This document shows positions 6,764 to 56,906 of a stretch of 64,000 bases of DNA, one piece after another; the stretch's first letter is position 1, and each line of letters opens with the position of its first letter. A program made the translations under genes and the position numbers. Source of the stretch: Massilia aquatica (lineage in GTDB: Bacteria; Pseudomonadota; Gammaproteobacteria; Burkholderiales; Burkholderiaceae_D). The notes beneath the pieces are model-generated. The model did no database searches and was not told where the DNA came from. It was given only the letters and a program-made list of their open reading frames with translations. Where the stretch lies: the NCBI RefSeq assembly GCF_011682045.1, contig NZ_VVIW01000002.1:558001-622000 (forward strand). The letters are read 5' to 3'.

Positions 6764-8467
6764 ATGGCACGGCCAGAAAAAGTCCGCCTCGGCGAAATCC
6801 TCGTCCAGCAAAAGCTGTTAACCGAAGATCAACTGGGTGCGGCGTTGCAAGACCAAAAGCGCACCGGCCGCAAGCTCGGGCGCGTCTTCATCGAAAACGG
6901 TTTCGTCACCGAGGAACAGATCTCGGGCGCGCTCGCCAAGCAGCTCGACATTCCATACATTCACCTCAAGTTCTACAACACCAATCCGGACATCGTGCGC
7001 CAGTTGCCGGAAACGCAGGCACGCCGTTTCCGCGCCATCGCGCTGGAAGACCGCCGCGGCGCGCTGCTGATCGGCATGTCGGACCCGACCGACCTGTTCG
7101 CCTACGACGAGATCGCGCGCCTGGTCAAACGCAATATCGAACTGGCCGTGGTCAACGAGACCGAAGTGCTGGCCGCGATCGACCGCATCTATCGCCGCAC
7201 CGACGAGATCACCGACTTCGCGCGCGAACTCGAGCAAGACCTGGGCGACACCTTCGTCGACTTCGGCACCCTGGCCGCCAATCCGGGCCTGGAAGAGGCG
7301 CCCATCGTCAAGCTGCTGCAATCGGTGTTCGACGACGCCACCCAGGTGCGCGCCTCGGACATCCACATCGAACCGCAGGAAACGCGGCTGCAGATCCGTT
7401 TCCGCATCGACGGCGTGCTGCACCTGCAAACCGAGGCCGATATCAAGATCGCCACGCCGCTGGCGCTGCGCCTGAAACTCATGTCCGATCTCGACATTTC
7501 CGAAAAGCGCCTGCCGCAGGACGGCCGCTTCGCCGTCAAGGTCAAGCAGCAACGCATCGACGTGCGGATTTCGACCATGCCGACCCAGTACGGCGAATCG
7601 GTGGTCATGCGACTGTTGAACCAGGGCGGCACCACCTTGCGGCTGGACGCGATCGGCATGCCGGCGCGCCTGGTGGAAAAATTCCGCGCCATCGTGCAGC
7701 GCCCCAACGGCCTGGTGCTGGTCACCGGCCCCACGGGGAGCGGCAAGACCACCACCTTGTACAGTGCTTTGTCGGAACTGAACTCGGTCGAGAAAAAACT
7801 GATCACGGTGGAAGATCCGGTCGAGTACCGCCTGCCCGGGATTAACCAGGTGCAGGTCAACGACAAGATCGAACTGTCGTTCGCGCGCGTGCTGCGTTCC
7901 GCCCTGCGCCAGGATCCCGACATCGTCCTGGTGGGCGAGATGCGCGACCAGGAAACCGCCCAGATCGGCCTGCGCGCCGCCATGACCGGTCACCTGGTGC
8001 TCTCGACCCTGCACACCAACGACGCCGCCAGCACCCCGCTGCGCCTGATGGACATGGGCGTGCCGCGCTACATGGTGGGCAGCTCGCTGCAAGCGGTGCT
8101 GGCCCAGCGCCTGGTGCGGGTGATCTGCGAAAGCTGCAGCACCAGCTACCAGACCACGCCGACGGAACGCGAATGGCTGCGCGCCGAGCTGCGCGAGCTG
8201 GCCGAGACCACCCAGTTCTTCCACGGCAAAGGATGCTCGCATTGCAACGGCATGGGCTACCGCGGCCGTACCGGCGTGTATGAGCTGCTGGAGATGACCA
8301 GCGCCGTGGTCGACGCCGCCAACCACCCGGACCCGGCCCACTTCTTAAAAGCCGCGCACGCCGAGATGCAGGGCGAGACCCTGCGCCGCCACGCCGTGCA
8401 GCTGGCCGTGCAGGGCCGCACCACGGTGTCCGAAGCGATGCGCATCAGTAACCAGGTCGAGGATTAA
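6764..8467 (+). CDS. mshE: MSHA-type pilus extension ATPase
   Basis: A 567-residue GspE/PilB-family ATPase, the motor of the plus-strand MSHA-type operon. The N-terminus carries two MshEN repeats (RLGEIL at residue 8 onward, KLGRVF about 30 residues later), a fold known to bind cyclic-di-GMP. In the first repeat the usual Gly before the second hydrophobic pair is Lys. Walker A GPTGSGKT is at 322-329, Walker B DPDIVLVGE at 384-392, and zinc cysteines are C455/C458 and C491/C494. The length is normal. mshG follows after 3 bases. The symbol rests on operon context plus the MshEN fold. Confidence 0.92.
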   Translation: MARPEKVRLGEILVQQKLLTEDQLGAALQDQKRTGRKLGRVFIENGFVTEEQISGALAKQLDIPYIHLKFYNTNPDIVRQLPETQARRFRAIALEDRRGALLIGMSDPTDLFAYDEIARLVKRNIELAVVNETEVLAAIDRIYRRTDEITDFARELEQDLGDTFVDFGTLAANPGLEEAPIVKLLQSVFDDATQVRASDIHIEPQETRLQIRFRIDGVLHLQTEADIKIATPLALRLKLMSDLDISEKRLPQDGRFAVKVKQQRIDVRISTMPTQYGESVVMRLLNQGGTTLRLDAIGMPARLVEKFRAIVQRPNGLVLVTGPTGSGKTTTLYSALSELNSVEKKLITVEDPVEYRLPGINQVQVNDKIELSFARVLRSALRQDPDIVLVGEMRDQETAQIGLRAAMTGHLVLSTLHTNDAASTPLRLMDMGVPRYMVGSSLQAVLAQRLVRVICESCSTSYQTTPTEREWLRAELRELAETTQFFHGKGCSHCNGMGYRGRTGVYELLEMTSAVVDAANHPDPAHFLKAAHAEMQGETLRRHAVQLAVQGRTTVSEAMRISNQVED

Positions 8468-24064: not shown

Positions 24065-25162
24065 TTACAAGCTCGCCAGCTCGCCCCAGACCTGCTTCAT
24101 CGGAAAACGTAGCTTCGCATGATCCTCATGCAAGGCTTCGGCAATTGCGCAGCCCGGTTCGCTGGTGAGGCGCTCCTGCGCCTCGCCCAAACTCTTGCCA
24201 TCGGCCGCGCGCAGCACATGCACGCCCATCCCCGCGCCGTCCTGCCCGCGCCGCGACACCACGCCCAGTTCGTCGTTCTCCAGCCTGACCAAAGTGCCCG
24301 GCGGATAGGCGCCGATCTGGGTGGCGAAGTGACCCAGCACGATCTGATCGTACGGCATCTCGTTGCCAGCCCCCAAACGCTCCAGCGCCACCGGCGGCAG
24401 CAAGGAACGCCGGTAATTGCGCGCCGACACGAATGCGCAGTAGCGATCGGCCAGCCCGATCAGCTTGGCATTCTGCGAAATCTCGTCGCCCAGCTTGCCG
24501 GCCGGATAGCCGCTGCCGTCATCGTTTTCGTGATGCAGCAGCACCAGGTCGAGCCAGTCCTCGTCGTGCACGCCGGCCCAGCGCAGCATCTCGACGCTGG
24601 CCGACGGATGGCGCCGCACCAGCGCCCGCTCTTCGTGCGAGAGTGCGCCATCCTTGTTCTGGAACAGTTCCGCCTGGCGCACCATGCCCACGTTCATGCT
24701 CAAGGCCGCCGCCGTGACCACCAGCATCTCGGCCGCCGACTTGCCCATGGCGCGCGCGATCAGGCAGGCGATCACGGCCGCCTCGGTGCAATGCCGCACC
24801 GCATATGCGCCGGCGATCTGGTTGAGGAAAATGGCGGCCAGCGCCACGTCGCCGCCGCGTTCGACGGTGGCGATCAGGTCGTCGGCGATGGTGCGCAGTT
24901 CGCGGTCGGCGCTGCCCTGGTCACGCAGGTCCATCAAGGTGCGTTCGAGGCGGCGGTTGATCTGGTTGAGCGATTGCAGCACCGACACCGGCGCCGACGC
25001 ATCGGCGTACACGCCGGCGACAAGCCAGTCGTCAAGCTCGCCGGGCGCGAGCACCTGGCCCTTTTTCAGCAGCGGACGGGCGGCCGAAGGCGTGCTGAAA
25101 ATATCCCAGCGCAGCGGTTCGCCGAACGCCAGGTCTGCCACGGTGATGCGCCTGATTGCCAT
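24065..25162 (-). CDS. Degenerate HD-GYP domain protein
   Basis: A 365-residue protein with an HD-GYP-like core, a family of cyclic-di-GMP phosphodiesterases. The second half of the motif set is recognisable: RRHPSASVEML, LLHHENDDGSGYPAGKLG and LADRYCAFVSARNYRR. The HD dyad itself, normally HDIGK, reads SMNVGM, so metal binding and catalysis are probably lost. An N-terminal region (residues 1-75) precedes it, and the C-terminus holds a small beta-rich domain. It starts 27 bases from the degenerate aminotransferase copy, so its upstream region has been rearranged. Confidence 0.8.
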   Translation of the reverse strand: MAIRRITVADLAFGEPLRWDIFSTPSAARPLLKKGQVLAPGELDDWLVAGVYADASAPVSVLQSLNQINRRLERTLMDLRDQGSADRELRTIADDLIATVERGGDVALAAIFLNQIAGAYAVRHCTEAAVIACLIARAMGKSAAEMLVVTAAALSMNVGMVRQAELFQNKDGALSHEERALVRRHPSASVEMLRWAGVHDEDWLDLVLLHHENDDGSGYPAGKLGDEISQNAKLIGLADRYCAFVSARNYRRSLLPPVALERLGAGNEMPYDQIVLGHFATQIGAYPPGTLVRLENDELGVVSRRGQDGAGMGVHVLRAADGKSLGEAQERLTSEPGCAIAEALHEDHAKLRFPMKQVWGELASL

Positions 25163-25189
25163 GTTTGAATATCCAGCTCGGGTAGATCA

Positions 25190-25438
25190 CGGTCTGGCCA
25201 GGCGTTTGGGCGCCGGGTGTCGTCTTTCGTGGAGACGCAAAAACGCACTGTCCCCGTTCCCGGCCCTCGCTGCCAAACGCGGAGTCGGGAATGGCGGCGA
25301 GCTTGATCCTGTCGTCAGCCATTGTGCGAATTCCGACTCCAGTATAGGCGATATCGCGTCGTCCCCGACACATTGAAAACAGCTTCCGTCGGCTGGCAAC
25401 AACGTGAAGCGGGAGCCCTTCACGCCGTCGCGAAATGG
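25190..25438 (-). pseudogene. Degenerate copy of aminotransferase 3' end (copy A)
   Basis: This stretch is a diverged copy of the last ~85 codons of the aminotransferase gene at 28192. One frame reads SRFTLLPADGS-FQC and SEFAQWLT, a second frame continues IKLAAIPDSAF, and a third gives RFCVSTKDDT. Each matches consecutive segments of the intact protein (SRFTLLPADGTYFQC, SEFAQWLTKE, IKVAAIPVSAF, RFCFAKTDDT). At least two frameshifts are needed, so it is not functional. It borders the broken gene at 25442 on one side and the HD-GYP gene on the other. Confidence 0.85.
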
Positions 25439-25441
25439 ATG

Positions 25442-26137
25442 TCAGGCGGGGGCAGCGATGCCAAGCAATTGCGCTGCGGTGTTCCTGCTTAGTTCACGGT
25501 TTCCAGTGCCGTACATCACGATGTTGACATTATGAACGTTCACTCCTTGCGTCTGCATCGCCCTTGCCACATGCGTCAAGTGGGAAATTCCTGGGTGGTA
25601 GTGACCGCTATGGTTGTTCACCTCCCCAATCCTTCCGTTTGTTAGCCTCATCGATCCTGCTGCGAGAACCGGTGCGCCCGCTAAAAAGCTTGAGTGATGA
25701 AAGCGCCCAACCTCCTTCTAACCAACGTAAAAATTGCCGGCACGGTCGAGTACAAAAATGACCTCCTTCTCGTCCTGGCTCAGTCCAAGTAGCGAGGGGT
25801 GGAAATTGACACGAACACCGCCATCTGCGTTGGAAAAAGTGATTCTGTAGGTAGCCCGATCCTCCAGCTCAAGATAGCGTACTCCGCGTACTTCACCCGC
25901 CTCGCGCCTTGCTAACCACGCAAAAAAATCCGGGCCGCGGTTTGGATCCCTCAAGAATACATACCACAGCGGATTGAGTTGCGTGGTGGGGCGGTGCAGA
26001 GGGTCCAACCTTTCCTTCCAGTAGGTGGGATTTAATGCCAGACTGCCCGGGAAGCCACCCCGATGGACGTCGCGGACCTTTCCAACCATGCGCTGAAGAT
26101 TGGTTATTCCCCTTGTTTGTTGTCCGGATGTTGCCAT
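25442..26137 (-). pseudogene. 231-codon gene interrupted by one in-frame TAG
   Basis: From the ATG at 26137 (site GGAG upstream) the frame runs 139 codons to TAG at 25718-25720, then continues in the same frame for 91 codons to 25442. The join is natural: DRAGNFYVG, stop, KEVGRFHHSSFLAGAPVL, SGHYHPG. The HHSSFLAG and SGHY motifs resemble a domain shared by bacterial effector-like proteins and plant IQM calmodulin-binding proteins. The stop could be a Tyr codon mutated to TAG. There is no signal peptide. Base composition is less GC-rich than the surroundings. It may be dead, or produce a short form of 139 residues. Confidence 0.65.
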
Positions 26138-26630
26138 ATCTATATCTCCAATGCCTTGAATTGAACTACTTGTGAAAGCGATCTAACGGAGAGCCAAGCG
26201 GATGCCCGCATCGGATTACATGACGAATTGCCCCCCGCACCGGCGATTCCACTTGAGTGTCAGGGGTCCGATGCGCGTATGCTTGAAACGAACGGCGTGA
26301 CCGAACCGACGTGCTTGACCAGCCGCCCGCGAACGCGCATACACATGTCACCGCCCGCGCGAATGGCGCGAACCACGCATCAGCGAAGCCATGCCGCCCG
26401 CAAAGCGCGGTCCGAAACGCCGCGCTTGACTGCACCGTGCGCAACTCCACAGCTGTGCGATGGCCTACCTGGAGGGAGCGTTAATTTCATGCAATCTTTC
26501 CCGGAGTATAAGGCGAAAAGCCTTGGATATCAACAAGAAAAATTATGCTTTGTGCATGTTATGGAAGCGCTTCCTGCGATCGTGCAACATGTCGTCGCAG
26601 AGGCGCCGCATTGACGCGCCGCCTTCACTC
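26138..26630. other. Gene-free stretch in the accessory island
   Basis: No coding region is convincing here. Overlapping frames exist on both strands (26228-26614 plus, 26166-26450 minus), but neither has recognisable motifs or a good ribosome site. Composition is mixed. The part next to 26138 presumably carries the promoter of the broken gene at 25442-26137. Confidence 0.5.
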
Positions 26631-26762
26631 AAGTATTGAAAACAGCTTCCGTCGGCTTGCGACAACGTGAAGGGGGAAACCCTCAACCCATCGCGGAAGC
26701 GGTTGCGCCTGCGCCGGCAAACCGCCGCCGACCAGGGTGATGGCCGGAGCGGGCAGGTTCAG
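26631..26762 (-). pseudogene. Second degenerate aminotransferase fragment (copy B)
   Basis: Two pieces of the aminotransferase gene are fused by a deletion. 26631-26710 matches the segment encoding the RFTLLPADGTYFQ region, and 26730-26762 matches the segment encoding LPAITLAGG. Over the 38 bases from about 26632, copy B differs from copy A (25371 onward) at only 2 positions, while both differ much more from the intact gene. A and B therefore share an origin separate from the resident gene's present 3' end. Confidence 0.7.
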
Positions 26763-27130
26763 GCGTAAGCGGATTTGCCGGTAATGGAGGCGTGGCTGAA
26801 GCACCACGCGAACATCACATCGGTAGTGGCATTGGCAATCGTGTCGGCGATGTTGATGCTGACTCTGCTGACATTGATGACACGAACACCCGGAAGGCGA
26901 TTTTGCCTGTCTTCATAGGCAAATGAACGGTCGGCGTAGTCGACGCCGCTGAAGTTGCCCTGCGGGTCGCCATGGGTGCCGCTGTAGATCGTCAAGGAGC
27001 CGCCATGGCGGCGGTATTGTTCCAACACCTCGGTGACGTCGTCAGCGCTCACCGTCCGATGGTTGGCACTCCAGACATTGCGTCCGTTATGGACTTCCTT
27101 TATGAAAAATCGCGTACTGTGAAATGCCAC
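26759..27130 (-). CDS. Small protein with caspase-like His-Gly and Cys motifs, probably truncated
   Basis: A 123-residue frame with GTG start at 27130 and a good GGGAG site 7 bases before it. A strand plus IYSGTHGDPQG and, near the end, DVMFAWCFSHAS resemble the His-Gly and Cys segments of caspase/clostripain-fold peptidases. The last codons run into aminotransferase copy B, so the original C-terminus may be lost. No signal peptide. Function is unknown; the caspase comparison is motif-level only. Confidence 0.55.
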   Translation of the reverse strand: MAFHSTRFFIKEVHNGRNVWSANHRTVSADDVTEVLEQYRRHGGSLTIYSGTHGDPQGNFSGVDYADRSFAYEDRQNRLPGVRVINVSRVSINIADTIANATTDVMFAWCFSHASITGKSAYA

Positions 27131-27382
27131 GTTATATCTCCCGTTAGTTGACTAGGTGGTCCTTCCTGCGGAGGGCGCGAATCGTGTTAAGGCTGGAGAA
27201 GACGCGTACCTGACGGCCTCCTGCACGATCGGCATGCTCGGTAAATATTAGCGCCGAATGTATTTTTGTGCAATGTTGTTCCGCTCTGGCGGCAATCGCC
27301 TGTTGGAGAGCTGTCGTTTCGACATCGACCGCCCGAGCGCCACGGATCAGTAGGTCAGGCAGCCGCCAGCGTTACGGTGCCG

Positions 27383-27979
27383 TTAGCAGTTGCCGTAGCG
27401 GCCGCCGTTGTTGATGACAAAGGTATTGGCCGCCTCTGGCGTGCACATCTTTACGGTCATGTTGCCGCCATAAATGCAGACCGGGTAGGCGACCGGTTCG
27501 TTGTTCCGGCAGGTAGGCACGTAAAGGTCGCCCGCCGAGCGCCACCAGATGGAGGTGGGATAAGAACTGCCTGGATGCGGGGAACCGCTCACTTCAAGCT
27601 TGCCGTCATCGTGCAGGCGCAGGGCGGTGGCCGGATCTGCGACGCCCGCCTGCGCGGTGCCGGTACTCCACAGTTGCTGATAGTTGTTACGAATGGCAAG
27701 ACCGTGGTTCTCGGTCAACTGGCCGTAGGTGCCGCCATTGCTTTGCGGACCGGAATTGAAAATCATCTGGAAGTCGCTAAGACGGTAGGTCACAAGGTTG
27801 CCGTTTTGCTGCATCAAGGTCATGTAGCGTAAGTTTGGCGAGAAAATCCTGTCGCCAGGATTGAGGCGGAAGTCAGGCCAGCCGTTGGTGGCCACGCTGC
27901 CAATATATTCGCCGGCGTGTGCCGCGCCAGAGGTGAGCGTGGCGAGGGAAAGTGCGATTGCGCTGAAGGCGTGTTTCAT
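27383..27979 (-). CDS. Secreted bulb-lectin-like protein
   Basis: A 198-residue exported protein. The ATG at 27979 starts a clean signal peptide ending GAAHA before GEYIGS; an ATG-less extension to 28003 is not needed. The body resembles a B-type mannose-binding lectin: LNPGDRIFSPNLRYMTLMQQ, NGNLVTYR, then LWSTGTAQAG and LRLHDDGKLEV. The last 40 residues contain four cysteines (PTCRN, YPVCIYGG, VKMCTP, terminal YGNC). The AT-rich 28004-28150 region is its likely promoter. It looks acquired, lying between the aminotransferase and its degenerate copies. Confidence 0.75.
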   Translation of the reverse strand: MKHAFSAIALSLATLTSGAAHAGEYIGSVATNGWPDFRLNPGDRIFSPNLRYMTLMQQNGNLVTYRLSDFQMIFNSGPQSNGGTYGQLTENHGLAIRNNYQQLWSTGTAQAGVADPATALRLHDDGKLEVSGSPHPGSSYPTSIWWRSAGDLYVPTCRNNEPVAYPVCIYGGNMTVKMCTPEAANTFVINNGGRYGNC

Positions 27980-28191
27980 AGGCTCTTTCTGATTGATGAA
28001 CAATAGTCGAGCCTTATTTTACTTTTTGAAAACGTTGTGTTTCTATCAAATAGTCACAAATGCAAAACTTTCTTTGTGCGGTTGGCACATCACGCCAGTG
28101 GCCCGAGATCACACCGGCCAGCCAAGCGACCGGCGATGACCCGGAAATTCGAGGCGCCCGAATTGGGCTGTGATTTCGAAACGCCGCTCAA

Positions 28192-29349
28192 TCACAACTT
28201 GCTCAAGCGCTCCAGCGCCAGGCGCAAAGTGTCATCGGTCTTGGCGAAGCAGAAGCGCACAATGCCCGACTCCTGGCCCTGGCTATAAAACGCGGACACG
28301 GGAATGGCGGCGACCTTGATCTCTTTGGTCAGCCACTGGGCGAATTCCGACTCGGGCAGCGCCGAGATCGCGTCGTAGCGCACGCACTGGAAATAGGTGC
28401 CATCGGCCGGCAGCAAGGTAAAGCGCGAGCCTGTCAAACCATCGCGGAACAGGTCGCGCTTGCGCTGGTAAAACGCTGGCAAATCCAGGTAGGGCGCCGG
28501 ATCGGCCATGTAGCCCGCCAGGCCATGCTGCATCGGCGTGTTCACGCTGAAAACATTATATTGGTGTACCTTGCGGAACTCCGCCATCAGGCTGGCAGGG
28601 GCGGCGACGTAGCCGATTTTCCAGCCGGTGACGTGATACGTCTTGCCGAAGCTCGATACGACAAAGCTGCGTTCGGCCAGCTCCGGATAGCGGCTCACCG
28701 ATTCGTGGCGCGCGCCGTCGTAGACCATGTGCTCGTACACCTCGTCCGACAGGATCAACATGTCGCTGCCGCGCACGATGTCGGCCAGCGTCTGCATGTC
28801 GGCCGCGCGCAGCACCGAACCGGTGGGGTTGTGCGGGGTGTTGATGACGATCAGGCGCGTGCGCGGCGTGACGGCGGCGGCCAGCCGGTCCCACGGCACG
28901 GTGTAGCCTTGTTCGCCGAGCTGCATCGACACCAGCACCGGCACGCCGCCGGCCAGGGTAATGGCCGGCAGATAGCTGTCGTAGGCCGGTTCGATCACGA
29001 TCACTTCATCGCCCGGATGCACGCAGCACAGGATGGCCGTGGTCAGGGCCTGGGTGGCGCCGGCGGTGACGGTGATCTCGCTGGCGGCGTCGTACCGGGC
29101 GCCGTACACGGCCGCGATCTTGGCCGCGATGGCGCCGCGCAGGGCGGGCACGCCGGTCATCATGGGATACTGGTTGTGGCCGGCGCGCATGGCGGCGTCC
29201 ACGTGGTCGAGCAGGGCCGGCTCGCAGGGAAAATCGGGAAAGCCCTGGCCCAGGTTGACCGCGCCATGTTCGCTGGCCAGCGCCGACATCAGCGAAAAAA
29301 CGGTGGTGCCGACGGCGGGCAGGCGGCTGTGCAGGACGGGAGTGGACAT
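28192..29349 (-). CDS. Class I/II aminotransferase (methionine aminotransferase, YbdL-like)
   Basis: A 385-residue PLP-dependent aminotransferase of the YbdL/kynurenine aminotransferase group, probably acting on methionine or aromatic amino acids. It shows LGQGFPDFPCEP and NQYPMMTGVPALR near the start, NPTG at 174-177, the SDEVYEHMVYD segment, and the PLP lysine in SSFGKTYH (K236) with TGWKIGY. The length is normal. It is followed by the lectin gene. Diverged copies of its 3' part at 25190 and 26631 show that this gene end has been a repeated site of insertion or recombination. Confidence 0.92.
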   Translation of the reverse strand: MSTPVLHSRLPAVGTTVFSLMSALASEHGAVNLGQGFPDFPCEPALLDHVDAAMRAGHNQYPMMTGVPALRGAIAAKIAAVYGARYDAASEITVTAGATQALTTAILCCVHPGDEVIVIEPAYDSYLPAITLAGGVPVLVSMQLGEQGYTVPWDRLAAAVTPRTRLIVINTPHNPTGSVLRAADMQTLADIVRGSDMLILSDEVYEHMVYDGARHESVSRYPELAERSFVVSSFGKTYHVTGWKIGYVAAPASLMAEFRKVHQYNVFSVNTPMQHGLAGYMADPAPYLDLPAFYQRKRDLFRDGLTGSRFTLLPADGTYFQCVRYDAISALPESEFAQWLTKEIKVAAIPVSAFYSQGQESGIVRFCFAKTDDTLRLALERLSKL

Positions 29350-53384: not shown

Positions 53385-54254
53385 ATGAACAAATTCGCCG
53401 TAGGCGTGGTGATCGCGGCCACGCTGGCGTCACCGCTGCTGGCCCAGGCACAGGTGCGCGCTGACGCCAGCCTGAGCAATTTCTCGTACACCCTGGTTGA
53501 TTTGTTGCCCGACGATGGCATCGTGCCCTCGCTCACCATCGTCGTGCCCGCAGATTATGCCGGCGCCTCCCAGATTTCTGCCTACCTCAGGCAGTATGGC
53601 GACACGGTCCCATCGCTGGACGACAAACGTACCCAATATACCACCCGCTATAACCGCGACATCAATGCGCGTCTCGACACGGCTGCCGGCAAGTCAGGCG
53701 CCAGCGTGACCGGTACTGATTTCGCTTCACTGCAATTTCGCACCACGGTCTCGACCACCAGCTCCGTTGCCGGAACCCGGCAGACGTATGCGTCCGCCAG
53801 TGCCAACATTGTCGAGTTCGTGCTCTCGCCGGGCACCCAGGTCTCGTTCTTCGCCGACTTCAACGGCAGCGCGTCCGCGGCGAAGCCGGCAAGCAGTCTG
53901 TTTCGGGAAGATGCGCAAATCGATGGTTCTTTTTCTTTAGTCGGCTATGTGCAGGACCAGGTGATCGGCGGGGACTCGAAAACGATCAGGGTGAAAGCGG
54001 CGAACGGTTATTACGACGCAAGTCCTCCTCCCATTGCGTCGAGCAGTGAGCGTTTTTCGCTGACGTTCGATAACAACTCGGCGTTGTCATCGAATCTGAA
54101 CTTGAAGTTTTCCTTGACCTCGTCCGCGGACAGTCAGTACTACAGCATGCTGCCACTGCCGGTACCCGAGCCGGCCACCACGGCCATGCTGCTTGCCGGA
54201 CTGGGCCTGGTCGCGGGCGCAGCGCGCCGCCGCCGCAAGGTCCAGGGTAACTAA
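53385..54254 (+). CDS. PEP-CTERM sorted secreted protein 1
   Basis: A 289-residue exported protein. The ATG at 53385 has AAGG upstream and starts a signal peptide ending AQAQ. The C-terminus has the exosortase signal VPEPATTAMLLAGLGLVAG followed by Arg-rich residues, so it is probably processed by an exosortase and displayed or released with exopolysaccharide. Its N-terminal motif SNFSYTLVDLLPDDGI is shared with the next gene; the two are tandem paralogues 24 bases apart. Confidence 0.85.
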   Translation: MNKFAVGVVIAATLASPLLAQAQVRADASLSNFSYTLVDLLPDDGIVPSLTIVVPADYAGASQISAYLRQYGDTVPSLDDKRTQYTTRYNRDINARLDTAAGKSGASVTGTDFASLQFRTTVSTTSSVAGTRQTYASASANIVEFVLSPGTQVSFFADFNGSASAAKPASSLFREDAQIDGSFSLVGYVQDQVIGGDSKTIRVKAANGYYDASPPPIASSSERFSLTFDNNSALSSNLNLKFSLTSSADSQYYSMLPLPVPEPATTAMLLAGLGLVAGAARRRRKVQGN

Positions 54255-54278
54255 CTCATTATTCAACTCAGGATTTTT

Positions 54279-55136
54279 ATGAAGACAATCGTTACCACGC
54301 TGGTACTGGGCGCAACGCTCGCCGTGCCGCTGTCGGCCAGCGCGCAAGTGAGCGCGCAAGGCACCTTGACCAATTTTTCTTACTCGCTGGTGGACTTGCT
54401 GCCGAACGACGGCATCGCGCCATCGCTGTCGATCGTCAAGCCGCTGTATCCCGCGCAGCTGGGCATCCGCGCCATCGGCGATATCAGCGAAACCGGCTTG
54501 CGCCAGAACCGCGAGAGCAGCGAAGACAATTCGCGCTTGCTGTACAGCCGCGATCTCGACGCAGGCATATCCCTCGCGCAGGGCACCGCGGTGTCGACCG
54601 TCAGCGGCACCAATTTCCAGACCCTGGCCTTGAGTACGGCCGCGTCGACCAAAAACGGCGCCGGCTACGAGCGCAGGGTGGTCGCGTCGAATTACGTGAT
54701 GATCGAAGAATTCGTCCTTTCGCCCGGTACTGAGGTCAGGTTCTTTGCCGACGTGCGTGGCAGCGTGGCGAAAGCACTGCCAAGCACCAATACCCTGAAA
54801 GAGAGTTCGGAACTCTCGGCCTCGATGAGCTTCCCTGAATTCAGCGCCAACGGCTACCCGGATTTCGTTTCGGAGTTCAGCATGCGAGCGCCGTCCTGGA
54901 GCGCCGATCCGAACGCGCCGTACTCGGAGTCGGCCAGCGAGCGCTTGTCGATCATGTTCCAGAACACGGCGAAAACGTCGTGGAAGCTGAAGGTGGAGCT
55001 CACCTTGTGGTCGGAAGCGAACTCGCTCGATACCTCGCCGGTGGCCAGTCCGGTGCCGGAGCCGGCGACGTACGGCATGCTCCTTGCAGGCCTGGCGCTG
55101 GTGGCGGGTGTGGCGCGCCGCAAGCGGCCTGCCTGA
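54279..55136 (+). CDS. PEP-CTERM sorted secreted protein 2
   Basis: A 285-residue paralogue of the preceding protein. A signal peptide ends SASAQ. Shared motifs are TNFSYSLVDLLPNDGI and EEFVLSPGTEVRFFAD (EFVLSPGTQVSFFAD in protein 1). The sorting end is VPEPATYGMLLAGLALVAG followed by ARRKR. The middle is diverged between the two. AGGA precedes the ATG. Confidence 0.85.
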   Translation: MKTIVTTLVLGATLAVPLSASAQVSAQGTLTNFSYSLVDLLPNDGIAPSLSIVKPLYPAQLGIRAIGDISETGLRQNRESSEDNSRLLYSRDLDAGISLAQGTAVSTVSGTNFQTLALSTAASTKNGAGYERRVVASNYVMIEEFVLSPGTEVRFFADVRGSVAKALPSTNTLKESSELSASMSFPEFSANGYPDFVSEFSMRAPSWSADPNAPYSESASERLSIMFQNTAKTSWKLKVELTLWSEANSLDTSPVASPVPEPATYGMLLAGLALVAGVARRKRPA

Positions 55137-55146
55137 GTGTTTGTTG

Positions 55147-55168
55147 CATGCGGGCGCGCGCCCGCATG
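55147..55168. terminator. 22-base palindrome after the PEP-CTERM pair
   Basis: A perfect self-complementary 22-mer with a GC-rich centre lies 10 bases after the second PEP-CTERM stop and before the displaced serB end. No T-tract follows; it could end transcription or mark a recombination boundary. Confidence 0.4.
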
Positions 55169-55189
55169 GTGTGATGAGCGCAGCGGCCC

Positions 55190-55379
55190 TTAGGCCAGGA
55201 TGTTGAGTAAACGATCCAGGCCCGTGTAAGTGAGCGCCGCGTCGGCCTGGGCGCGCACCACCGGCTTGGCGTGAAACGCCACCGACCGGACGGCGACGCT
55301 CATCATGGCCAGGTCATTGGCGCCGTCGCCCATGACAATCGCCTGCGCCGTGTCGATGCCGATCTCAAGGCACACGCGT
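55190..55379 (-). pseudogene. Displaced 3' end of serB
   Basis: The last ~62 codons of serB are repeated here: LGIDTAQAIVMGDGANDLAMM, VVRAQADAALTYTGLD and LLNILA with its own TAA at 55190. Compared with the intact copy at 56055, similarity starts at the stop codon and ends sharply at AAGGCACACGCG (55368-55379); I judge roughly four bases in five identical. It has no 5' part and cannot be a complete gene. Confidence 0.9.
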
Positions 55380-55591
55380 TAAAATATGCTAAAGCGAGCG
55401 TGGGGGAGGACTTTGCGGAATCCGTGGTCATGTACGGGCACAGTAAAGGCGGAAAGCGCGAAGCGACTACGCGGCGATTGTATCCCGAGCGCTATAAGGA
55501 ACTGGGTCGTATCTTCTCGGCCAGGAAAAACAAACAGGATCGTGTCATCGCAGTTCAGCTTGAGCGACCTTGCCGGCTTTCGACAATTTGA
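55380..55591 (+). pseudogene. 5'-truncated ORF at the serB junction
   Basis: Immediately at the end of the serB similarity, an open frame begins on the other strand without its own start. It reads YAKASVGEDFAES, MYGHSKGGKREATTRR, LYPERYKELGRIFSARK. It looks like the end of a basic DNA-associated protein; a recombinase tail is conceivable but I cannot identify it. The sharp join suggests the incoming DNA was cut inside this gene. Confidence 0.4.
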
Positions 55592-55637
55592 TAAGCAGGA
55601 TCAGAGACTGCTGTTTCAGGCAAGCATAAGGAATCTC

Positions 55638-55949
55638 ATGGATATATATTGTGAAACTCAACCTGTCCCGGTGCATCAAGTCGTTACCGTCGACATGTTT
55701 ACAAATTTGAAAACAGAAAAGCCTTTTTCCAGTCTGCCAACAAGCTTGCAGTTTCAACCGAAAATTATTGAGTGTGATGGCGTAAAGAAGACGGTAATGG
55801 TGCCAGTCGCGACAGTGGAATTTGTTCCGTTGAACGCCAAGGGAGACCTGGTCGCCAGGCAGGATGCTGTACTCGTCCGGATTTCTTACTACGACGAGGA
55901 AGGGCGCAGGCTCAGTACCACGACCTTACGTAAAAATGCCGCCAAATAG
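55638..55949 (+). CDS. Hypothetical 103-residue accessory protein
   Basis: From the ATG at 55638, with AAGGA five bases upstream. It starts MDIYCETQPVPVHQVVTVDM and ends in a beta-rich stretch (VMVPVATVEFVPLN, DAVLVRISYYDEEG). No signal peptide or helix. Composition is clearly less GC-rich than serB or mfd, in line with transfer. Function is unknown. It converges on serB. Confidence 0.65.
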   Translation: MDIYCETQPVPVHQVVTVDMFTNLKTEKPFSSLPTSLQFQPKIIECDGVKKTVMVPVATVEFVPLNAKGDLVARQDAVLVRISYYDEEGRRLSTTTLRKNAAK

Positions 55950-56054
55950 ACGATGACAAGCACCTCTTGCTGTTATCTTATCGCTGCGCGCTATAAAAGT
56001 TCGCAACTTCATCGATAGACATGGCTGACTTGACGCTCGGCTGCCGTCGCGCGA

Positions 56055-56906
56055 TTACGCAAGAATGTTCAGCAGCCCGTCCAGCCCAGTGTACGTCAGG
56101 GCCACGTCGGCCTGGGCGCGCACCACCGGCTTGGCGCGGAACGCCACCGACAGGCCGGCGATGCTCATCATGGCCAGGTCGTTGGCGCCGTCGCCCATGA
56201 CGATCGCCTGCGCCGTGTCAATGCCGAGGTCAAGGCACACGCGCTCCACGGTGCGCTTCTTTTCTTCGGCGTCCACAATCCCTCCCAGCACGCGGCCGGT
56301 CAGTTTGCCGTCCACGATCTCCAGCACGTTCGCGTGCGCGAAATCGAGCCCCAGGCGTGCCTTGAGGCGGTCGGTAAAGAAGGTGAACCCGCCCGACACC
56401 AGCAAGGTGCGCAGGCCGGCCGCGCGCACAGCCGCCAGCATCGCTTCGCCGCCCATCGACATGGCCAGCCGCTCGTCGTACACGCGTTCCAGCGCCGCCG
56501 CGTCCAGCCCGGCCAGCAGCGCCACGCGCCGCGTCAGGCTGTCGGCAAAATCCAGCTCCCCGCGCATGGCCGCTTCGGTAATCGCCGCCACCTGGGGTTT
56601 GAGGCCCTGCATGTCGGCGATTTCGTCGATGCACTCGATGGTGATCAGGGTCGAATCCATGTCCATCGCCACCAGCTTGAAGTCGGCCAGGGCGCGCCCC
56701 GGTGCGATGAAGGTGGCGTCGATGCGCGCCGCGCCGGCGGCCACCTCGATAGTCTGCTTGAGGGCCTCGGAAAAATCGATGGCTTCGCAGCGAATGGCGC
56801 ACTCGCCCAGTTCCGTCACGCGCGCCGGGTTGGCCAGCGCGGCGATGCGGCGCAAGGTGTCGAGGGTGGTGTCAAGGCCTTGCAGCACCAGGTTCATCGT
56901 CGTCAT
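56055..56906 (-). CDS. serB: Phosphoserine phosphatase
   Basis: A 283-residue HAD phosphatase making serine from phosphoserine. The catalytic motif is MDMDSTLI (D82, D84). LLVSGGFTFF is motif II and GDGANDLAMM motif IV, with the SerB ending YTGLDGLLNILA. It starts 7 bases after the mfd stop, so it is probably co-transcribed. Its 3' end is duplicated downstream at 55190, so the present end may have been supplied by inserted DNA. Confidence 0.95.
   Translation of the reverse strand: MTTMNLVLQGLDTTLDTLRRIAALANPARVTELGECAIRCEAIDFSEALKQTIEVAAGAARIDATFIAPGRALADFKLVAMDMDSTLITIECIDEIADMQGLKPQVAAITEAAMRGELDFADSLTRRVALLAGLDAAALERVYDERLAMSMGGEAMLAAVRAAGLRTLLVSGGFTFFTDRLKARLGLDFAHANVLEIVDGKLTGRVLGGIVDAEEKKRTVERVCLDLGIDTAQAIVMGDGANDLAMMSIAGLSVAFRAKPVVRAQADVALTYTGLDGLLNILA

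What the first reader, a model, noticed from the sequence alone, without database searches (positions are those of the whole stretch)
25190..28191. Accessory cassettes behind an aminotransferase gene, separated by diverged copies of that gene's 3' end
Behind the intact aminotransferase (28192-29349) lie a lectin-like gene and a caspase-like ORF, then aminotransferase fragment B, then a broken effector-like gene, then fragment A. Fragments A and B resemble each other (2 differences in 38 bases) more than the intact gene. The simplest reading is repeated insertion of cassettes that each carry or displace the 3' end of the host gene. The cassettes are small and carry no integrase, unlike ordinary islands. 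Repeated homologous exchange between relatives followed by decay is an alternative.
Basis: partly seen in the sequence, partly recalled or inferred. Interest (0 to 1): 0.82.

Follow-up and report, generated by a model that had tools for sequence, protein, structure and literature searches.

The report
Toxin cassettes stacked behind aminotransferase gene
In a group of related bacteria, small toxin-like genes have been added more than once behind the same household gene, leaving broken copies of that gene's tail behind, which records how new genes can be acquired without a visible mobile element.

Summary
Two diverged fragments of the aminotransferase (AT) 3' end lie behind the intact gene (25187-25435, about 26637-26775; E 1e-36 and 8e-8). 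AT and HD-GYP adjoin in 11 of 16 genus genomes with AT; the interval is filled in four (window, G003, G007, G009 = Massilia rubra), one is unreadable. Contents vary: Tox-HDC gene plus AT fragment (two), lectin-like bacteriocin relative plus AT fragment (one), all of these plus a broken gene X (window). The intact gene's 3' end follows the cargo: window and G003 share it, while the gene body groups the window with G007 (3' data reject the body topology, AU p 0.0002). Behind the G003 lectin gene lies sequence resembling the Tox-type AT end. Best reading: stepwise displacement by homology-anchored illegitimate recombination, as proposed for T6SS and CDI loci, but anchored in a metabolic gene. Two further loci in the genome (serB, an ATP-grasp gene) show this architecture. 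The first step could be one ancestral tandem duplication (not rejected).

The parts
28192..29349 (-). Intact methionine aminotransferase (anchor gene)
   Evidence: Pfam PF00155 6e-56; NF006569 634 bits
28192..28440 (-). 3' end of the intact AT, 'lectin type' (nt about 910-1158), shared with G003 and discordant with the gene body; boundary approximate
27383..28003 (-). Lectin-like bacteriocin relative; dN/dS 0.16-0.34 against G003
27282..27382 (-). Junction between lectin and Tox units; no AT remnant detected here in the window
   Evidence: p 0.14-0.57 over six ATs
27131..27281 (-). Leader of the Tox unit, homologous to sequence that begins about 30 nt behind the AT stop in G009 and G007
26759..27130 (-). 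Tox-HDC-like small protein; dN/dS 0.29-0.45 against G009 and G007
26637..26775 (-). AT fragment B (AT nt about 359-418 and about 839-962), directly behind the Tox stop
26138..26636 (-). Upstream part of unit X; no match in the other 16 genus genomes
25718..26137 (-). Unit X, first ORF piece (139 aa); found in 1 of 294 family genomes (own)
25442..25651 (-). Unit X, second ORF piece (69 aa), separate from the first: gene looks broken
25187..25435 (-). AT fragment A (nt 901-1158 with stop), outgroup-type 3' end, still joined to HD-GYP
24065..25162 (-). HD_5/HD-GYP-type gene, downstream neighbour of AT in relatives
   Evidence: synteny
56055..56906 (-). Second instance: intact serB (phosphoserine phosphatase; name recalled)
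55379..56054 (.). Second instance: about 0.68 kb insert; 55392-56054 matches no other of 17 genus genomes
55190..55378 (-). Second instance: 189-nt serB 3' fragment, 86.8% identical to own serB

Best explanation
The AT to HD-GYP boundary is a stepwise displacement locus. Incoming DNA from a relative carries AT sequence followed by a small foreign gene. One end recombines homologously inside AT (for the lectin step near nt 910, beside a nearly invariant block at about nt 875-911); the other end is joined illegitimately within or just behind the recipient's AT 3' end. AT stays intact with a new 3' end, the cargo sits behind it, and the old 3' end is pushed downstream and decays. Steps inferred: (1) ancestor AT-HD-GYP; (2) Tox-HDC unit added, older AT 3' end displaced (fragment A lineage); (3) lectin unit added with another 3' end, displacing the Tox-type end (remnant in G003), and passed between lineages; (4) in the window, unit X entered the displaced fragment, leaving AT nt about 901-962 on both sides. 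Shown: variable contents, fragments, tree conflict. Supported but weaker: the Tox-type remnant in G003. Inferred: uptake route, illegitimate joining, order of steps, an antibacterial role of the cargo.
For: Interval empty in 11 of 16 genus genomes with AT, filled in 4, unreadable in 1. Cargo: Tox in 3 of 294 family genomes, lectin in 2 of 294 plus one weak hit (G081, 9e-6), first X piece in 1 of 294; the strong hits all lie at this locus. The fragments next to HD-GYP carry the outgroup type of 3' end, the four intact ATs do not; window A, G007 and G009 share a 7-nt deletion (G003's fragment ends before it). Informative sites in nt 865-1158: window+G003 17, window+G009 4, window+G016 1; in nt 1-865: 7, 10, 5. 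Change points at nt 908-929 in six of seven comparisons of window or G003 with outgroups or G009, at 779 in the seventh, all p 0.007 or less. 3' data reject the body topology (AU p 0.0002). Sequence behind the G003 lectin gene aligns to the Tox-type AT end (score 33, p 0.003 and 0.007). Same architecture at serB and an ATP-grasp gene. Tox and lectin under constraint.
Against: One duplication in the clade ancestor explains the oldest fragments as well. The G003 remnant is short and gapped, and the native-type end of G005 also scores above shuffles (25, p 0.03; G016 20, p 0.16). No AT remnant is found between lectin and Tox in the window. Body data reject the cassette topology only marginally (p 0.0499; concatenate 0.064), and single-gene trees of HD-GYP and serB order the clade differently, though neither joins window and G003. 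Outgroup pairs have change points too (G016-G002 at nt 909, G016-G005 at 569), as has G009 against outgroups (nt 116-200). At the ATP-grasp gene and serB the displaced copy is not closer to relatives than the intact end (81.3 v 84.7%, 87.8 v 89.9% to the nearest relative). No donor was found in the genomes searched; viral and metagenome collections were not scanned. ComEC is present but also in control genomes, so it says little.
Confidence: 0.68

Rival explanations
1. One ancestral tandem duplication of AT with a captured gene, followed by decay and ordinary homologous exchange of the middle part between relatives.
For: Displaced 3' ends as sister to the clade's intact ATs are not rejected (AU p 0.85); a shared 7-nt deletion shows one origin of the fragment in window, G007 and G009.
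Against: Does not by itself explain the Tox-type-like end behind the G003 lectin gene, AT nt 901-962 on both sides of X, or the serB and ATP-grasp cases. Duplication in each genome separately is rejected (delta lnL 136).
Confidence: 0.19
2. Site-specific integration of small elements that use the gene's 3' end as attachment site and carry a replacement 3' end, with the integrase supplied elsewhere.
For: A replaced 3' end on the intact gene with the old end displaced is the usual outcome of such integration (recalled); X entered the same AT stretch in the displaced copy.
Against: No recombinase among 16 scanned ORFs of the interval. Duplicated lengths differ: from AT nt 196 in G007, from 901 in window A, tens of nt behind the G003 lectin gene, 189 nt at serB, 208 nt at the ATP-grasp gene. 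Tox and lectin were not found on plasmids; X and the serB insert match no other genus genome; the ATP-grasp insert matches others only in 34-45-nt end stretches that look like cut intergenic repeats.
Confidence: 0.08
3. Chance similarity or unrelated pseudogene debris.
For: Both fragments are decayed.
Against: E 1e-36 and 8e-8, empty reversed control, AT fragments at the same place in four species.
Confidence: 0.01

Closest known systems
Sequential displacement of T6SS effector-immunity modules in Vibrio cholerae (PMC5361080; abstract and passages seen)
   Same: Incoming module anchored by upstream homology, illegitimate other end, older genes and in one step the 3' end of an effector shifted downstream; finished arrays exchanged by homologous recombination.
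   Different: There the anchor belongs to the secretion cluster or effector gene and immunity genes are kept; here the anchor is a metabolic gene unrelated to the cargo, and small toxin-like genes without an evident immunity gene are added.
Orphan cdi modules in Acinetobacter (PMC6336857; passages seen)
   Same: Remnants displaced 5' to 3' by newer insertions; same mechanism proposed by the authors.
   Different: The anchor is the toxin gene's own conserved part.
Minimal mobile elements of Neisseria (search listing; passages of PMC1538595, which do not define them; definition recalled)
   Same: Different small cassettes between two conserved genes, no mobility gene, exchange through flanking homology.
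   Different: Ordered remnants of a flanking gene's 3' end are not something I recall for them; not checked.
Lectin-like bacteriocins LlpA/LlpB (PMC6240691; passages seen)
   Same: Sequence similarity of the lectin gene product to pyocins L1 and L2.
   Different: 206 aa, far below the NCBIfam LLB_putidacin cutoff (23.7 of 275 bits); activity untested.

Membership tests
Stepwise displacement by homology-facilitated illegitimate recombination | Homologous crossover on one side within the anchor gene | tested here: met
   Change points near nt 910 and 5'/3' tree conflict for the lectin step; change points also occur in some outgroup pairs
Stepwise displacement by homology-facilitated illegitimate recombination | Non-homologous joint on the other side | tested here: inconclusive
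   Joints fall at differing AT positions, but no donor sequence is known
Stepwise displacement by homology-facilitated illegitimate recombination | Older ends lie further downstream, in order of age | tested here: inconclusive
   G003 shows lectin-type end, Tox-type-like remnant, native-type fragment in that order; the remnant is short, and the window lacks it
Stepwise displacement by homology-facilitated illegitimate recombination | Recipient takes up DNA | not testable with these tools
   ComEC gene present, not diagnostic
Minimal mobile element (definition recalled) | Alternative cassettes between two conserved genes, no mobility gene | tested here: met
   (16 ORFs scanned, not every small ORF)
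Site-specific integrative element | Integrase and one fixed core at both ends | tested here: not met
   No integrase among 16 scanned ORFs; variable duplicated lengths
Lectin-like bacteriocin, LlpA type | Two B-lectin domains | tested here: inconclusive
   206 aa; NF033557 match covers residues 62-139 only; no Pfam B-lectin hit at E up to 1; structure model too poor to use
Lectin-like bacteriocin, LlpB type | Single B-lectin domain with C-terminal extension | tested here: inconclusive
   Similarity to pyocins, no Pfam B-lectin hit
Tox-HDC | Pfam PF15656 above cutoff with conserved H, D/N, C | tested here: met
   26.7 bits, cutoff 21; H53, D55, C110 invariant in three species (their role is recalled)

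The most novel reading that the evidence does not exclude
In this clade gene 3' ends in general act as landing places for small accessory cassettes: an integrase-free route in which each addition leaves a further stretch of homologous 3' end that can anchor the next one, so that a locus once hit is hit again, even inside the displaced copy, as with X.
Probability: 0.3. Interest if true: 0.68.

Novelty: new variant of a known kind. Interest (0 to 1): 0.52.

Why it matters
It gives a layered record of how small toxin-like genes enter a chromosome without a visible mobile element, and suggests that the displacement process described for toxin loci also works with a metabolic gene as anchor. Three loci in 1.65 Mb of one genome suggest a countable source of accessory genes that a strain panel could measure.

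Tried and rejected
Structure prediction of the Tox and lectin proteins gave mean pLDDT 35.7 and 34.7; not used, no fold search made. PADLOC gave no hit and PHROGs only weak ones for four proteins. Plasmids: no match for Tox or lectin; X was not searched there; phages, viral contigs and metagenomes were not searched. A first lectin alignment used the wrong strand and was discarded. A 16-base match between the X leader and the ATP-grasp insert was not pursued; about one is expected by chance (my estimate). End stretches of the ATP-grasp insert in relatives look like cut intergenic repeats, not element ends (judged by eye).

Survey bookkeeping. The first survey listed many spurious ORFs and was replaced by a GC3-filtered one. 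Of its 15 rows I count four as three loci (AT two rows, ATP-grasp, serB). The script had put serB on the wrong strand as a 5' case; I reassigned it by hand. Rows left out: a 135-aa ORF with a 3' copy upstream (contig 22, 421050), a 3' copy inside another ORF (contig 5, 81965), three 5' rows (contig 22 568346, contig 2 121698, contig 9 15609, the last an intergenic repeat by eye) and six 'mid' rows. Three loci are too few to claim a 3' bias. G016, 800,000 bases and 590 ORFs, gave two rows, neither a 3' case; about 1.5 would be expected at the G000 rate, so this shows no difference.
Full report
Observation. Behind the intact aminotransferase (AT, 28192-29349, minus strand; NF006569) lie, in the direction of transcription, a lectin-like gene, a Tox-HDC gene, AT fragment B, a broken gene X, AT fragment A and the HD-GYP gene. 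Fragment A matches AT nt 901-1158 up to the stop codon; fragment B matches about nt 839-962, with a further piece of about nt 359-418, so it has an internal deletion. A reversed copy of the interval gives no hit.

Relatives. AT was found in 16 of 17 genus genomes and HD-GYP in 16 of 17. The HD-GYP match begins within about 70 nt of AT in 11 genomes (G001, G002, G005, G008, G010-G016); the interval is about 1.0 kb in G003, G007 and G009 and 3.0 kb in the window; G004 has only a partial match behind AT and G006 no AT match. Of 80 named loci, 20 hold an HD-GYP match behind AT: in 19 it begins within about 190 nt, in one (M. rubra) after 1.0 kb. Of the 95 loci tested there, only the two of M. rubra/G009 show a copy of their own AT 3' end; two others gave hits of 20 and 43 nt elsewhere, and the G003 fragment was missed with its own AT as query and is seen only with other queries. 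G009 and G007 hold AT, Tox-HDC, AT fragment (from AT nt 196-201 on, with internal deletions), HD-GYP; G003 holds AT, lectin gene, AT fragment, HD-GYP. In the family, Tox was found in 3 of 294 genomes, the lectin in 2 of 294 with a third at E 9e-6, the first X piece in 1 of 294; the strong hits lie at this locus.

The fragments are old 3' ends. In A and the fragments of G003, G007 and G009 the AT 3' end is of the type of the outgroup genes (G016, G002, G005, closely G015), while the four intact genes are not. Window A, G007 and G009 share a 7-nt deletion, so their fragment arose once; that of G003 ends before this place. Duplication within each genome is rejected (delta lnL 136, AU p 0.0003), and so is an origin from the Tox-type end (p 0.02); but a sister relation of fragments and the clade's intact genes (one ancestral duplication, p 0.85) cannot be told from a closer relation to outgroups (p 0.25). 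How the first step happened is therefore open.

The intact gene's 3' end travels with the cargo. Among window, G003, G009 and G016, informative sites in nt 865-1158 favour window+G003 17, window+G009 4, window+G016 1; in nt 1-865 the figures are 7, 10 and 5. Change points of window or G003 against outgroups or G009 fall at nt 908-929 in six of seven comparisons and at 779 in one, all with permutation p of 0.007 or less; window against G003 shows none (p 0.14). Controls are mixed: two outgroup comparisons with G015 show none (p 0.93, 0.22), but G016-G002 has one at nt 909 with less divergence behind it (p 0.003), G016-G005 at nt 569 (p 0.03), and G009 against G016 and G002 at nt 200 and 116 (p 0.01, 0.02). 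AT body, HD-GYP and serB together place the window with G007 (69), then G009 (87), then G003 (97); HD-GYP alone joins G007 with G009, and serB alone puts G003 before G009; none joins window with G003. The 3' end groups window with G003 at 100%. The 3' data reject the body topology (AU p 0.0002); the body data reject the cassette topology only marginally (p 0.0499), the concatenate not (p 0.064).

A second layer is seen in G003. The sequence directly behind its lectin gene aligns, with gaps, over about 66 nt to the end of the Tox-type AT and the start of the Tox leader (score 33 with G009 and G007, p 0.003 and 0.007 in 300 shuffles; native-type G016 20, p 0.16, and G005 25, p 0.03; lectin-type 14, p 0.85). 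This suggests three layers: lectin-type end on the intact gene, a remnant of the Tox-type end, and the native-type fragment. In the window the same junction has no detectable remnant (p 0.14-0.57). X lies inside the displaced fragment, with AT nt about 901-962 on both sides; there B and A differ at 10 of 63 columns, fewer than either differs from the other fragments or from the window's intact gene, though A is at 8 from the intact genes of G009, G002 and G005.

Cargo. The lectin gene product resembles pyocins L2 and L1 (4.7e-7, 3.5e-5 and 5e-5) and weakly the putidacin family (23.7 bits, cutoff 275); single-domain LlpB proteins are described in the literature (passages of PMC6240691). The Tox gene matches Tox-HDC above cutoff. 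Both evolve under constraint (lectin dN/dS 0.16-0.34; Tox 0.29-0.45 between window and G009 or G007, 0.14-0.17 between G007 and G009; two methods). An antibacterial role is inference. X has no family hit.

Other loci. A search for local direct repeats over 1,652,842 bases of this genome (1185 filtered ORFs) yielded three loci that I accept: AT; serB (56055-56906; 189-nt copy at 55190-55378, 86.8%; insert about 0.68 kb; strand reassigned by hand); and an ATP-grasp (R2K) gene on contig 5 (L196 2962-3711; 208-nt copy at 6942-7147, 89.9%; insert about 3.2 kb). In 16 relatives serB has no such copy within 1.5 kb, and in G007 and G009 it runs straight into the window's downstream region. The ATP-grasp gene was found in 5 of 17 genomes; in G009, G016 and G002 it runs straight into the region behind the displaced copy, and G005 shows the same on a gene split over two contigs. 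The serB insert occurs in no other of the 17 genomes; the ATP-grasp insert matches three others only in stretches of 34-45 nt at its ends. In both cases it could not be decided which 3' copy is the incoming one. G016, surveyed over 800,000 bases, gave none.

Mechanism. Varying duplicated lengths, no recombinase among the ORFs scanned, a switch of ancestry inside the gene and layered remnants fit homology-anchored illegitimate recombination. The same process was proposed for T6SS effector loci, where one insertion shifted back the 3' end of an effector (PMC5361080, passages), and for CDI loci (PMC6336857, passages); it is discussed as a source of variable segments (PMC2884548, passages). The founding experiments in competent species were seen only in reference lists, and a study in E. 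coli conjugation (PMC3240628) only as a listing. The difference here is the anchor: a metabolic gene that has nothing to do with the cargo. I saw no paper on this locus or on such anchoring in six searches; these cover only the held open-access library, and I saw titles and abstract starts of the listed papers.

Verdict. A real, variable displacement locus; a new variant of a known kind. The bolder reading, gene 3' ends as general landing places in this clade, rests on three loci and needs a strain panel.

Noticed in passing
window 55190-56906: Second locus with the same architecture: serB, a 0.68 kb insert with an apparently broken opposite-strand ORF, and a 189-nt serB 3' fragment; no such copy in 16 relatives.
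   Followed up: yes
L196 2962-7147 (same genome, contig 5): Third such locus: ATP-grasp (R2K) gene, 3.2 kb insert with ORFs lacking a clear family, 208-nt 3' copy.
   Followed up: partly
window 53694-55190: The region behind the serB fragment is about 98.7% identical to G007 (by subtraction) while serB itself is about 93%: a sign of recent homologous exchange.
   Followed up: no
L133 1-552 and the end of L132 (G007): In G007 the AT gene is split at two contig ends, one of which carries a transposase-like ORF (named by eye): probably an insertion element inside AT.
   Followed up: partly
L289, L290, L291, L196 6886-6943: An intergenic repeat with roughly palindromic ends occurs in several Massilia genomes; the right end of the ATP-grasp insert seems to cut through one copy.
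   Followed up: partly
window 26175-26190 and L196 5843-5858: An identical 16-base sequence lies in unit X's leader and in the ATP-grasp insert; unexplained, may be chance.
   Followed up: no
AT nt about 909 in G016 and G002 (L021, L022): These two outgroup ATs are far more alike behind nt 909 than before it, so this position may be a general exchange point.
   Followed up: no
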